Origin: Planctomycetales bacterium 10988
GTDB taxonomy: Bacteria > Planctomycetota > Planctomycetia > Pirellulales > Pb10988
DNA length: 64,000 nucleotides
Direction of reading: 5' to 3'
Assembly (NCBI GenBank): GCA_009664345.1
Contig: CP043547.1
Coordinates: 4,678,709 to 4,742,708, forward strand
Below, one piece after another: positions 4,342-46,851 of the stretch. Position numbers and translations under genes: made by a program. The notes under the pieces were generated by a model, which searched no databases, was not told the origin of the DNA, and saw only the letters and a program-made list of their open reading frames with translations. Numbering within the stretch: the first letter of the stretch is position 1; every line of letters starts with the position of its first letter.

Positions 4342-4758
4342 AACATAGGCCTCAGAGAATCGATGTCCGTACGCCGGGAGTTCACCCCCATGGTGCTACC
4401 TCATCGATGGGTAGCGATCAGAGCTCACATTTTTGAAGTTTTATTCTAAAATTATTACCTATCGGTGACAAGTGAAGTAGGCACAACTCAGCAGGTTCTC
4501 TCTTTTCCGTGATTCTGTCTTTTCATCTTAAAGCAGAACTTCGCGGAAACAAGCGTCTTTTCGAATCGACGATTGATTCCTACGAGCCGGTGGGGAAGCT
4601 AGCAAAAATCAGATAGGCACTTTGAATTTGTGAAACTCAAGGGTCGCTCGCCCACATTCTCAAAAAATCAGGGAGCCGAATTCGTTCGCTCCGCGTTAAT
4701 ACTATACTGTGTAGTCGTTGTTCATTTCTCTTTTGCCTTTAGGAGATGGGGTACTTCG
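4342..4758. promoter_or_regulatory. Divergent intergenic region between CRP-like regulator and antiporter
   Basis: The 417 bases separate two divergent genes, so promoters on both strands are expected. An extended -10-like element (TACTATACT) lies near 4697-4705 on the plus strand, about 55 bases before the preferred TTG start of the antiporter. No clear palindromic CRP-like operator could be assigned by eye. Confidence 0.35.
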
Positions 4759-5862
4759 TTGGTCCTGCTCACTTTTTTCTTGGGTCTTGGTTTGTTGACA
4801 CTGGGGGCGGAACTCTTGGTCCGCAGCGCTTCCCGCCTGGCGGCAATGGTGGGAATTAGTCCGTTGGTGATCGGTCTCACCGTGGTTGCCTTAGGGACCA
4901 GTGCCCCGGAGCTGGTTGTCAGTATTCAATCGACTTGGGCGGGACAACCGGAGGTTGCCTTAGGGAATGTCTTAGGAAGCAATATTTTCAACATTCTTTT
5001 TATCTTGGGAGTCTCCGCACTGATTATTCCGCTGAGGGTTTCGGTTCAACTGATTCGCTTTGATGTCCCCTTGATGGTCGCCATTTCGATTTTGATCTTG
5101 CCGCTAGCCTACGACGGAACGATCGGGAGAATCGATGGAGGGCTCCTCACTGCCGGATTGGTGGCTTATATGATCTGGACCATCCGTGCGAGTCTGCGAG
5201 AAGAAACTCAGCTCGATCCGGAAGTGGCGGCGGAGTTCGAGCCTGCTCCTTCGCCGAATAATTCAAAAAGTACTTTTTTAAATGTGGGAATGTTGCTGGG
5301 AGGACTCGCCCTGTTGGTGCTCGGCTCTCAATGGTTTACTTCCTCCGCTGTCGAGATGGCGCGGCAATTGGGGTTCTCGGAGTTGGTCATTGGATTGACC
5401 CTGGTCGCGGGAGGAACTTCCTTGCCGGAAGTCGCGACTTCCGTGATGGCGGCTTTGCGTGGTGAGCGTGACATTGCGGTAGGAAATGTCGTAGGGAGTA
5501 ATCTCTTTAATTTACTGGGCGTGCTGGGAATTGCCGGCCTGGTCTCTCCGGCAGGAATCCCCGTGCCGCCGACCGCCCTTTCGCTCGACCTTCCGGTGAT
5601 GATCGCGGTTTCGATTGCCTGCTTACCGATTTTCTTTACGGGGCACTTGATCGCACGCTGGGAAGGCGGCCTCTTCTTGGGGTATTACGTTCTCTACACG
5701 ACTTATTTAATTCTCGCCGCGAGTTCTCCAACTTGGACGAAGAGCTTCAGCTTGGCGATGTGCTTCTTTGTCGTTCCGCTCACGGTGTTGACGTTGGGGA
5801 TCAGCCTTTACCGTGCGATTCAGAAAAGGGAACAAGGAGAGGAAGGGCCATCGAAACCCTAA
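4759..5862 (+). CDS. Ca2+:cation antiporter, CaCA family (YrbG-like)
   Basis: This is an inner-membrane sodium/calcium-exchanger family protein with about ten membrane helices in two inverted halves. Both alpha repeats are clear: GTSAPELVVS with GNVLGSNIFNILF in the first half, and GGTSLPEVATSV with GNVVGSNLFNLLG in the second. Their acidic and Asn residues form the ion-binding site in this family. A charged loop of about 40 residues separates the halves. The reading frame is open from 4630, but the first 43 codons do not resemble the family. The TTG at 4759 (after AGGAG at 4741) begins right at the first helix and is preferred; the exact start is uncertain. The likely role is Ca2+ or other cation efflux. 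Confidence 0.88.
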   Translation: MVLLTFFLGLGLLTLGAELLVRSASRLAAMVGISPLVIGLTVVALGTSAPELVVSIQSTWAGQPEVALGNVLGSNIFNILFILGVSALIIPLRVSVQLIRFDVPLMVAISILILPLAYDGTIGRIDGGLLTAGLVAYMIWTIRASLREETQLDPEVAAEFEPAPSPNNSKSTFLNVGMLLGGLALLVLGSQWFTSSAVEMARQLGFSELVIGLTLVAGGTSLPEVATSVMAALRGERDIAVGNVVGSNLFNLLGVLGIAGLVSPAGIPVPPTALSLDLPVMIAVSIACLPIFFTGHLIARWEGGLFLGYYVLYTTYLILAASSPTWTKSFSLAMCFFVVPLTVLTLGISLYRAIQKREQGEEGPSKP

Positions 5863-5864
5863 AA

Positions 5865-5882
5865 TCAAAAAGTGCTTTTTGA
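5865..5882. terminator. Palindrome between convergent genes, possible bidirectional terminator
   Basis: The perfect 18-bp palindrome TCAAAAAGTGCTTTTTGA lies just after the antiporter stop and just before the 3' end of the convergent gene at 5892. Its A/T runs suit a weak bidirectional terminator. The first 15 bases recur at 14554 and 16665. Confidence 0.45.
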
Positions 5883-8096: not shown

Positions 8097-8529
8097 TGAG
8101 GAAAAGACTATTTAATCTGTAGTCTTCCAGGGGGAATCCGGCCAGTTCAGAGATATTAGAAAAGTAGCAACTAGTTAAAGTATACCACGCAGGGACTCCG
8201 GAAATTGGACTTCTCTCAAAGTTGCGATTCGTGCTATATCTGAAGTGCAATCCTCAAGCGATGAGCTTAGCTGAAAGGATCGCCAACCGCGAATGGGAAT
8301 GATTGAGCTTCAGCGTCGTTGATTCACTGGGAAAAATGTCCCCAACGGCTTGGTGGGAACAATTAGAGTAAGTGGTCAAAAGGTCTTTGAGAGCCACGTT
8401 TTCCAAGTGCCCAACGGTTTCTGTCGGGTTTTGACCACTGGCTCTTCGTAATAAAAAGCATGTTACTTCATTCCACTTGAACATCTCTCAATTCCACTCC
8501 TTTTCACTCTTCCTGATCGAGGTACTATC
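8097..8529. other. Intergenic region holding repeat copy 1
   Basis: This is the divergent gap between the polyketide synthase and the response regulator. It contains repeat copy 1 at 8364-8446 and presumably promoters for both genes. No credible protein-coding frame was found. Confidence 0.5.
8364..8446 (+). repeat. 85-bp-class repeat with terminal inverted repeats, copy 1
   Basis: The ends form an imperfect inverted repeat: left AGAGTAAGTGGTCAAAA, right (reverse complement) AAGAGCCAGTGGTCAAAA. The right half shares an identical 20-mer (8417-8436) with copy 2 at 21728-21747, and the spacing between conserved blocks is 45 versus 44 bases. It ends 84 bases before the response-regulator start codon. 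It could be a MITE-like element or a structured leader RNA. Confidence 0.6.
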
Positions 8530-16630: not shown

Positions 16631-16664
16631 ACCCGACTACTCCCTCGGAGAGAAACAATGAAAA

Positions 16665-16681
16665 TCAAAAAGTGCTTTTGA
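16665..16681. repeat. Palindromic TCAAAAAGTGCTTTTGA between receptor and cheA
   Basis: This near-perfect palindrome sits in the 55-base gap between the receptor stop and the cheA start. Its first 15 bases are identical to 5865-5879 and 14554-14568. It could reduce read-through or be a protein-binding site. Confidence 0.4.
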
Positions 16682-21643: not shown

Positions 21644-21675
21644 CCTTCGCCTTTGACACCTGTTGAGGACACTTC

Positions 21676-21757
21676 TAGAGTTCGTGGTCAAATTAATTTG
21701 AGTCTTACTTTTATCAAGCAAAGCTTCGTTTCTGTCGGGTTTTGACCCTAGGCTCTT
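21676..21757. repeat. 85-bp-class repeat with terminal inverted repeats, copy 2
   Basis: Left end AGAGTTCGTGGTCAAA; right end (reverse complement) AAGAGCCTAGGGTCAAAA. A 20-mer at 21728-21747 is identical to 8417-8436. It fills most of the 126-base gap between the PilG-type and PilH-type genes, so on the minus strand it would be in the PilH leader or intercistronic RNA. Confidence 0.6.
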
Positions 21758-21769
21758 ACATGGATTGCA

Positions 21770-33333: not shown

Positions 33334-33415
33334 AAAGAGCCAGCGGTCAAAACCTCTGAGAACGAGGTAAACACCTAAAATAGGTGGCCTTCGAAATACT
33401 TTTGACTACATACTC
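33334..33415 (-). repeat. 85-bp-class repeat with terminal inverted repeats, copy 3
   Basis: Read on the minus strand it runs from TGAGTATGTAGTCAAAAG to GGTTTTGACCGCTGGCTCTTT, matching the ends of copies 1 and 2. Two small internal hairpins are perfect here (CCTC/GAGG at 33353-33367 and CACCT/AGGTG at 33372-33386), giving a three-stem layout. It is more diverged than copies 1 and 2. Confidence 0.5.
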
Positions 33416-33578
33416 AAAAATGCTCGTCCTGCACAGAGACGAACGATTAACAATACCTTAAGGTTCACTGTTGCCCTATCGTAGACAAATTCTATCACGA
33501 CAGGAACAGGCTTCGCTACCAAATCAAGCTTATTTACTTCTCTTATCTCATTGTAGTTCAAGAGGCACAACGTTCCAC

Positions 33579-42930: not shown

Positions 42931-42975
42931 TTGAAATGACTTACGGATAAAACACGACAGCAATATATAAGACAA

Positions 42976-43020
42976 CGCAAAAACCGATGGATCCCAACTG
43001 TGGATTCATCGGTTTTTGCG
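42976..43020. terminator. Strong bidirectional terminator
   Basis: A perfect 14-bp inverted repeat pairs CGCAAAAACCGATG (42976-42989) with CATCGGTTTTTGCG (43007-43020), between convergent genes ending at 42930 and 43059. Confidence 0.88.
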
Positions 43021-43058
43021 TTGGTATTCTTCATTCAACAATCAAATGGAGAAGCCCT

Positions 43059-46104: not shown

Positions 46105-46482
46105 ATGCCAAACAAAATGACTCTCGACAGACTAAAGGAAGCCTACCATAAAGGGATGTGGACCAATAAGGAGTTTTCAAGAAGATATCTTAACAGGATG
46201 GAAGATGAAGATTGGCTTGCCCATTATCATACTCTAGACGAGCAACTCCAAAAGCAACTTCTCGATTACGCTATTTATCGTGTGAAAGCTTGGAAACCCG
46301 GTTTGAGAGTCTTTCGAATTATGACTGTCGCTTGGGTCAAAGGGGCCACCGATCCAGTATGCGAAGAAACGATTACCCGAGAAGAGATTGAAATCACAAG
46401 AAAATATCTAAAACTTTATTTCGATCTGGATGTCGTTACTGAATACGATCTTGAAAACAAATCGAATGGCACAGATCAATAA
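46105..46482 (+). CDS. Small protein, first of a tandem paralogous pair
   Basis: The 125-residue protein starts at ATG 46105 after AGAGGGTGGA. The sequence is charged, with Trp/Tyr-rich helices (KEFSRRYLNRMEDEDWLAHYHTL in pattern). The C-terminal part EEIEITRKYLKLYFDLDVV is nearly identical to that of the next gene. Family unknown. It lies 29 bases after the macro-domain gene, so it is probably co-transcribed. A partner or immunity role in an ADP-ribose-linked system is speculation. Confidence 0.7.
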   Translation: MPNKMTLDRLKEAYHKGMWTNKEFSRRYLNRMEDEDWLAHYHTLDEQLQKQLLDYAIYRVKAWKPGLRVFRIMTVAWVKGATDPVCEETITREEIEITRKYLKLYFDLDVVTEYDLENKSNGTDQ

Positions 46483-46503: not shown

Positions 46504-46851
46504 ATGCCAGCTAAGAAACAAATGCCTGCTCGAATCCGAGAGATGTATGAGAAGGGCGTTCTAACTCGACACCATGTCTCTTGGCTCTATTTGGAAAGGA
46601 TTGAGGCAGACGGTTGGTTTGAGGAATATCAGTATTTCACCGCCGAGATCAGACAGATGATTCTCGAACGTGCCATCGCTTGGGTTGAATCTTGGACCCC
46701 TAAAAGCAGGGCTTGGCATGTCAGTTCTGTTGGCTCAAATTACCCCGGTGAACCTATTCCAAGAGAAGAAATAGAAACAATTAGAAAATATCTAAAACTA
46801 TACTTTGATCTGGATGTCGTTCCAAAATACGATCTCGAAAAGACAGATTAA
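46504..46851 (+). CDS. Small protein, second of the tandem paralogous pair
   Basis: The 115-residue protein has ATG 46504 and follows the first paralogue by 21 bases. It shares the overall layout (REMYEKGVLTRHHVSWLYLERI, then AWVESWTP) and a strongly conserved end (EEIETIRKYLKLYFDLDVV). The two genes also share near-identical DNA over the region coding that end, indicating tandem duplication. Function unknown. Confidence 0.7.
   Translation: MPAKKQMPARIREMYEKGVLTRHHVSWLYLERIEADGWFEEYQYFTAEIRQMILERAIAWVESWTPKSRAWHVSSVGSNYPGEPIPREEIETIRKYLKLYFDLDVVPKYDLEKTD

What the first reader, a model, noticed from the sequence alone, without database searches (positions are those of the whole stretch)
8364..8446. 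Three-copy repeat of about 85 bp with terminal inverted repeats next to signalling genes
Copies lie at 8364-8446, 21676-21757 and 33334-33415 (minus). Copies 1 and 2 share an identical 20-mer; all three share a GGTCAAAA/TTTTGACC stem and AGAG/CTCT ends at equal spacing, and copy 3 has two further perfect internal hairpins. Each copy lies upstream of, or between, response-regulator or kinase genes. It may be a MITE-like element or a structured leader RNA. No matching family is known to me.
Basis: partly seen in the sequence, partly recalled or inferred. Interest (0 to 1): 0.72.

Follow-up and report, generated by a model that had tools for sequence, protein, structure and literature searches.

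The report
High-copy miniature transposon in a bacterium
The three repeats are old copies of a short, gene-less jumping element present well over a hundred times in this bacterial genome and most likely moved by a resident insertion sequence of the IS5 family; it is a new member of a well-known kind, and its place beside signalling genes looks like coincidence.

Summary
The repeat is real but has far more than three copies. A model built from 19 copies finds at least 150 in the 6.65-Mb genome (capped). A rebuilt one finds 176 in 1.18 Mb held and none in the same sequence reversed. The unit is about 84 bp, with imperfect inverted ends running from GAG to CTC.

Copies are flanked by a 3-bp target duplication, mostly TTA or TAA. 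Where both sides read TNA, the middle base agrees in 64 of 74, against 40 expected; it is the strongest covariation in the element.

A resident 887-891-bp IS5-family insertion sequence, 16 near copies, has similar ends and duplication, matching the published IS1031 group. The repeat is a miniature element (MITE), probably moved in trans.

An RNA role lacks support: little compensatory change, no orientation preference, no Rfam match. Signalling genes are not enriched over matched controls. None of 395 other genomes of the order matched. Copies are over-represented between divergent genes and rare between convergent ones. Ordinary in kind, well documented.

The parts
8366..8444 (+). MITE copy 1 (GAG...CTC); flanks 8363-8365 TTA and 8445-8447 TTC (decayed target duplication)
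   Evidence: (92.3 bits)
21678..21755 (+). MITE copy 2; flanks 21675-21677 CTA and 21756-21758 TTA; left arm lacks one A
   Evidence: (74.6 bits)
33337..33415 (-). MITE copy 3; flanks 33416-33418 and 33334-33336, TTT/TTT in the element's frame (identical triplets)
   Evidence: (87.5 bits)
4584..4661 (-).
   Evidence: 33.4 bits, E 1.7e-6; rebuilt model E 9.3e-5
8366..8382 (+). left terminal inverted repeat of copy 1
   Evidence: model positions 6-22 of the consensus
8428..8444 (+). right terminal inverted repeat of copy 1, close to the ends of the resident IS
   Evidence: model positions 68-84 of the consensus; IS ends; consensus comparison

Best explanation
The repeat is a MITE: a non-autonomous DNA element of about 84 bp with two imperfect inverted ends (left GAGTTTGTGGTCAAAAG; right, read inward, GAGCCAGTGGTCAAAACC) and an interior of about 45 bp too short to code for a transposase. 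A transposase of the resident 887-891-bp insertion sequence (IS5 family, IS1031-like), or of a close and now lost relative, recognised the ends and inserted the element at a T-N-A target with a 3-base stagger, so that copies were born flanked by TTA/TTA or TAA/TAA. The element amplified as at least two subfamilies, and the copies have since decayed where they lie. Shown here: copy number, ends, target duplication, a resident IS with transposase genes and similar ends. Inferred: that this IS (or its relative) moved it, the insertion chemistry, and the history.
For: Dispersed family: 90 exact GGTTTTGACC against 16 for the reversed control; 150 model hits, the number scored, all at E 3.3e-5 or better; 176 copies at E up to 1e-3 in 1.18 Mb held, 0 at that level in the same sequence reversed. 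Target duplication: triplets identical in 71 of 125 copies complete at both ends (permutation mean 39.5, maximum 53 in 2,000 shuffles); among the 74 with TNA on both sides the middle base agrees in 64 (expected 40; 0 of 20,000 shuffles); bases just outside the triplets show no comparable agreement. Columns 4 and 86, the middle bases of the duplication, are the top covarying pair among column pairs at least 3 apart in 167 aligned copies (z 16). Partner: one IS copy examined has ORFs matching DUF4096 and DDE_Tnp_1; 16 near copies at 86-100% over most of a 125-aa query. Over 17 positions the MITE right end matches the IS end at 16 and the left end at 14. The IS duplication is TTA or TAA and identical on both sides in 9 of the 15 distinct copies in which both ends were located. 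Decay pattern: mean deviation from consensus 12-13% in the ends against 29% in the interior, as expected if the ends were constrained while the element was moving. 8 of 176 copies overlap a predicted gene by 45 bp or more.
Against: The MITE shares only its ends with the IS: its interior aligns to four IS copies no better than shuffled interiors do, so it is not a simple internal deletion of the present IS. The left end matches the IS less well (TT where the IS has CC). No empty site was found in the held sequence: of 2 spanning hits neither is a clean empty site (one covers only one flank plus a short stretch, the other is a gapped match in the element's own region), and no close relative is held. 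The best pairs of copies are only 93% identical, so nothing points to recent movement. 54 of 125 complete copies do not have identical triplets, and neither do 6 of 15 IS copies. The T and the A of the triplet have decayed unequally, which I cannot explain.
Confidence: 0.93

Rival explanations
1. A structured leader RNA or cis-regulatory RNA, with the inverted arms as a conserved stem acting on downstream signalling genes.
For: Copies lie mostly between genes, and 49 of the 150 that could be placed in a gap lie in divergent gaps. On one strand the arms can pair with two G-U wobbles (consensus). One internal pair (positions 38 and 46, C-G to T-A) covaries (z 12.6), also within each subfamily to a lesser degree; 3 of 16 stem pairs (6-84, 14-76, 15-75) and the internal pair 36-48 exceed shuffles at 2% or better.
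Against: The excess at those stem pairs is only 4 to 6 copies of about 165, and the other 13 stem pairs do not reach that level; of 5 pairs of the second internal hairpin none does. Shuffles ignore relatedness, so some excess is expected without structure. No orientation preference: 49 same, 41 opposite. RNAalifold finds 3 pairs; no Rfam match in the window. The 38-46 change largely separates two subfamilies. No enrichment of signalling genes over matched controls. The target duplication is not explained by this reading.
Confidence: 0.03
2. A REP/REPIN-type repeat dispersed by a RAYT (single-strand Y1 transposase).
For: High copy number, intergenic, paired inverted motifs; REPs are reported in Planctomycetes (PMC3733652, passages read).
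Against: No Y1 transposase (PF01797) in the genome at E 0.001: 0 matches, while the same search finds it in 5 of 14 control genomes (genome completeness given as 95.6%). A 3-bp target duplication is supported, which REPs are not known to leave (recalled). No GTAG- or CGTC-tagged stem-loop in the consensus.
Confidence: 0.01
3. A variant of the best explanation: a MITE moved by a different, now lost transposase, the resemblance to the present IS reflecting common ancestry of the ends.
For: Interior unrelated to the IS; left end matches only 14 of 17; MITE copies are much more diverged from each other (mean 66.5% identity) than the IS copies (86-100% aa); no longer element with both MITE ends was found around the stray ends examined.
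Against: Right end matches the IS at 16 of 17 positions, with the same GAG termini and the same TNA duplication.
Confidence: 0.35

Closest known systems
IS5 family, IS1031 group of insertion sequences
   Same: The partner IS is 887-891 bp with ORFs matching DUF4096 and DDE_Tnp_1, GAG/GAA...CTC ends and TNA 3-bp duplications. ISLrh, an IS1031-group member, is 857 bp, has 17-bp ends GAACCTG..., two overlapping ORFs and a 3-bp TNA duplication (PMC12016507, passages read).
   Different: The repeat itself has no gene and shares only the ends.
Bacterial MITEs (e.g. Correia/NEMIS, RUP, Nezha, Chunjie, MITECca01)
   Same: Short, non-coding, inverted ends, target duplication, intergenic, many copies (PMC10969869, passages read; PMC3733652, passages read). 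MITECca01 of Cardinium has 169 copies and a parental IS982-family element (PMC9769881, passages read).
   Different: Different sequence and, from MITECca01, a different partner family; about 84 bp is short; the copies here are old and diverged.
Tourist-like MITEs of plants (PIF/Harbinger)
   Same: 3-bp TTA/TAA duplication and a transposase lineage similar to bacterial IS5 (PMC2213677, passages read).
   Different: Eukaryotic, different ends; a parallel in mechanism, not membership.
REP/REPIN repeats
   Same: Numerous short intergenic repeats with inverted parts.
   Different: Here there are transposon-like ends and a target duplication, no tagged stem-loop, and no Y1 transposase found in the genome.

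Membership tests
Prokaryotic MITE | short (typically under 500 bp), no coding capacity | tested here: met
   of 125 copies complete at both ends, 66 span exactly 90 bp including short flanks and 28 span 89; an ORF for a transposase cannot fit
Prokaryotic MITE | terminal inverted repeats | tested here: met
   consensus arms, (imperfect)
Prokaryotic MITE | target-site duplication | tested here: met
   71 of 125 triplets identical against 39.5 by shuffling; middle base 64 of 74 against 40
Prokaryotic MITE | many dispersed copies | tested here: met
   150 scored; 176 in held sequence
Prokaryotic MITE | autonomous element with similar ends in the same genome | tested here: met
   16 of 17 positions at the right end, 14 of 17 at the left; same kind of duplication
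Prokaryotic MITE | empty site at an orthologous or paralogous position | tested here: inconclusive
   none in the held 17.7% of the genome; no close relative available
Prokaryotic MITE | mobilisation in trans by the partner transposase | not testable with these tools
   needs an assay
IS1031 group (for the partner IS) | IS5-family transposase in two ORFs, TNA 3-bp duplication, GAG/GAA ends, about 860 bp | tested here: met
   against PMC12016507; duplication identical in 9 of 15 copies; no phylogeny of the transposase was built and the frameshift was not tested
Structured RNA (leader/riboswitch) | compensatory changes in the stem | tested here: not met
   3 of 16 arm pairs above shuffles at 2% or better, by a few copies each; one internal pair covaries, largely along the subfamily split
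Structured RNA (leader/riboswitch) | fixed orientation to the downstream gene | tested here: not met
   49 same, 41 opposite in same-strand gaps
REP/REPIN | Y1 (RAYT) transposase in the genome | tested here: not met
   0 matches to PF01797 at E 0.001; control found in 5 of 14 genomes

The most novel reading that the evidence does not exclude
The MITE family is not neutral clutter: it is over-represented upstream of genes (divergent gaps 49 observed against 33 expected by length, convergent 10 against 28) and may have supplied promoters or regulator sites to many genes at once, a bacterial parallel to Tourist-type MITEs near plant genes.
Probability: 0.12. Interest if true: 0.55.

Novelty: new member of a known kind. 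Interest (0 to 1): 0.3.

Why it matters
It describes a large MITE family together with its probable helper IS in one bacterial genome (a planctomycete, judging by a few gene families), and shows that a target duplication can be read statistically from very old copies. The parallel with eukaryotic Tourist MITEs (same 3-bp TTA/TAA duplication, transposases similar to IS5) makes it a usable bacterial case of that behaviour. For the first-stage finding it removes a supposed signalling-linked RNA.

Tried and rejected
Structured RNA: disfavoured by Rfam, RNAalifold, covariation and orientation.

Signalling-gene association: looked real against random genes (response regulators in 6 of 120 downstream genes, against at most 1 of 120, inferred because the family is not among the 25 listed), then vanished against genes with an element-free upstream gap of at least 120 bp (6 of 125; protein kinases 5 of 120 against 3 of 125). 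Genes under about 80 aa or over about 1000 aa were left out; 120 of 161, 120 of 552 and 125 of 263 genes were sampled. The downstream set contains 5 window genes, two of them (a response regulator and a kinase) from the finding itself; the matched control contains window genes too, including a response regulator beside copy 2. Gene calls come from my own hexamer-based ORF picker, not a standard gene finder; at least one call (the gene beside copy 2) probably starts too far upstream.

IS630-type TA duplication: considered from the flanks and dropped; the duplication is 3 bp and the partner is IS5-type.

REP/RAYT: dropped; no Y1 transposase found.

A longer autonomous element with both MITE ends: not found. 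Of 15 regions fetched around stray ends and an IS copy, 7 hold further full or nearly full MITE copies (E 5e-12 to 5e-6), 2 hold 45-46-bp end-to-end forms, one is an IS copy already counted, and the rest hold lone ends or weak matches. One 459-bp pairing there rests on a poor second end. About 100 of 173 hits per end pattern were listed, so not every stray end was seen.

Empty sites: none. Naming the host: an NADH-dehydrogenase-like query gave only distant hits (46-54% identity); the exact right-end 20-mer is in no genome contigs record, but the window's own genome may be left out there. Literature: the listings show no paper that obviously describes this repeat; these are titles and abstract beginnings, and the library lacks most subscription journals. 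I ran no search for the sequence itself in print.

Full report
Observation. The three copies exist at the stated places. An alignment of 19 copies, 3 from the window and 16 from loci of a first pattern search, gives a clear consensus of about 84 bp, refined with 144 copies to ttTTAGAGTTTGTGGTCAAAAGTaanTTGaGaGtCACcTTTTCCAnGTGttTanCtGtTTCTGannGGTTTTGACCACTGGCTCTtagnn. A fourth, decayed copy lies at 4578-4666 on the minus strand.

Extent. GGTTTTGACC occurs 90 times in the genome against 16 for the reversed pattern; not all of the 90 are copies (some of the first 30 lie elsewhere). A covariance model with only 3 base pairs (R1) scores 150 places, the number it was allowed to score, all at E 3.3e-5 or better. 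I fetched these places and 13 other stretches: 1,179,792 bp in 130 segments. In that sequence an HMM rebuilt from 144 of the copies finds 176 non-overlapping copies at E up to 1e-3 and none at that level in the reversed sequence. Seven more full or nearly full copies turned up in regions fetched around stray ends. The true total is probably around 200 or more; that is an estimate. The 150 are spread over the whole chromosome and both strands (78 of 150 on plus; 16-32 per megabase bin). None of 56 other genomes in a first sample and none of 395 in a second, overlapping sample of the order has a match. No genome of the same family was in the first sample. Both searches used stricter filters that lose weak matches, and the second scored only the 11 best candidates per genome.

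Mobility. Among 125 copies complete at both ends, the triplets next to GAG and CTC are TTA/TTA in 46 and TAA/TAA in 18; 71 of 125 are identical, against 39.5 by shuffling (maximum 53 of 2,000). Among 74 copies with T-N-A on both sides the middle base agrees in 64 (40 expected; 0 of 20,000 shuffles). Bases just outside the triplets do not show it. In an unsupervised covariation scan of 167 aligned copies the middle bases of the two triplets are the strongest pair in the element (z 16). I read this as a 3-bp target duplication.

Partner. Several lone matches to the right end proved to be ends of a longer element. It is 887-891 bp from GAG to CTC. One copy examined has ORFs matching DUF4096 and DDE_Tnp_1. 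There are 16 near copies at 86-100% identity plus one partial copy with a stop. Its ends are GAGCCTGTGGTCAAAACTG or close variants, and the flanking triplet is TTA or TAA and identical on both sides in 9 of the 15 distinct copies in which both ends were located. The MITE ends match it at 16 and 14 of 17 positions; the MITE interior does not match it better than chance. Length, two ORFs, GAG/GAA ends and TNA duplication agree with the IS1031 group as described for ISLrh (PMC12016507, passages). The ten plasmid records listed have relatives at 41-44% identity, annotated as IS5 family or IS5-like, and all 978 records with a match are under 60%. In the order, 13 of 395 other genomes have a relative at E 1e-20 or better, at 38-46% identity in the matches listed.

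History. Copies average 66.5% identity to each other and 78% to the consensus; the closest pairs reach 93% (144 copies). The ends deviate from consensus at 12-13% of positions, the interior at 29%; within the two main subfamilies the interior figure falls to 17% and 24% and the ends to 8-12%. This fits an element constrained at its ends while it was moving, and since then decaying. It does not require a function in place, but does not exclude one.

Context. Using a simple gene caller of my own (843 genes, 71% coding), 8 of 176 copies overlap a predicted gene by 45 bp or more, 2 of them wholly. 150 could be placed in a gap between two genes: 91 between same-strand, 49 between divergent and 10 between convergent genes, against 89, 33 and 28 expected from the lengths of element-free gaps (p about 5e-5) and 91, 34 and 25 from the number of TWA sites (p about 5e-4); the remaining copies lay at segment edges or were not placed. 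The bias towards 5' regions could be an insertion preference, selection against landing in terminators, or a function; I cannot tell. Held sequence was chosen around the elements, so the baseline is not a random sample.

Signalling genes. Response-regulator domains occur in 6 of 120 sampled downstream genes, at most 1 of 120 random genes, and 6 of 125 genes with long element-free upstream gaps; protein kinases in 5, at most 1 and 3. The likely reason is that regulatory genes tend to have long upstream gaps. Planctomycete-type domains (Planc_extracel in 3 of 120; DUF1501) suggest the phylum, but I did not identify the organism.

RNA. The arms are complementary, but substitutions in one arm are mostly not answered in the other: 3 of 16 pairs exceed shuffles at 2% or better, by 4 to 6 copies. 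One internal pair (38-46) changes from C-G to T-A, largely along the subfamily split but with some excess inside each subfamily. RNAalifold, Rfam and orientation give no support. REP-type dispersal is unlikely: no Y1 transposase is found.

Verdict. A MITE with a 3-bp TNA duplication and a resident IS5-family (IS1031-like) helper candidate: a new member of a known kind.

Noticed in passing
L175-L187 and genome 862670-863011: A second IS5-like insertion sequence (37-38% identical over the N-terminal query), 14 places; most loci examined have ends around GGCTCTGTCTGAAAAGGT with CTAG-like flanks.
   Followed up: no
copies aligned: In the element's frame the T of the flanking triplets is kept in about 94% of copies but the A in only about 73%; neutral decay should treat both alike. 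Unexplained.
   Followed up: partly
L197:2447-2492 (genome 340746-340791), L190:2333-2377 (genome 2424332-2424376): Forms of only 45-46 bp, one end almost directly joined to the other, probably internal deletions of the MITE.
   Followed up: partly
L166, L167, L170: Three copies of the IS share the same short flank (GTCCTAC next to TAA) on one side but differ on the other, and lack matching triplets; perhaps insertion beside another repeat or a rearrangement.
   Followed up: no
genome 3235371-3235539 (L103): Two MITE copies abut in the same orientation with almost no sequence between them; the second seems to lack its outer left end.
   Followed up: no
window 5861-5879 and 16661-16679: An identical 19-mer AAAATCAAAAAGTGCTTTT at or just beyond ORF ends, with weaker copies at 5259 and 14550; may be terminator-like.
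   Followed up: no
window 42973-43023: A 22-bp inverted repeat, 95% complementary, with 7 bases between the arms; terminator-like.
   Followed up: no
window 46366-46457 and 46750-46841: A 92-bp direct repeat, 80% identical, in two neighbouring small ORFs that may be a tandem duplication.
   Followed up: no
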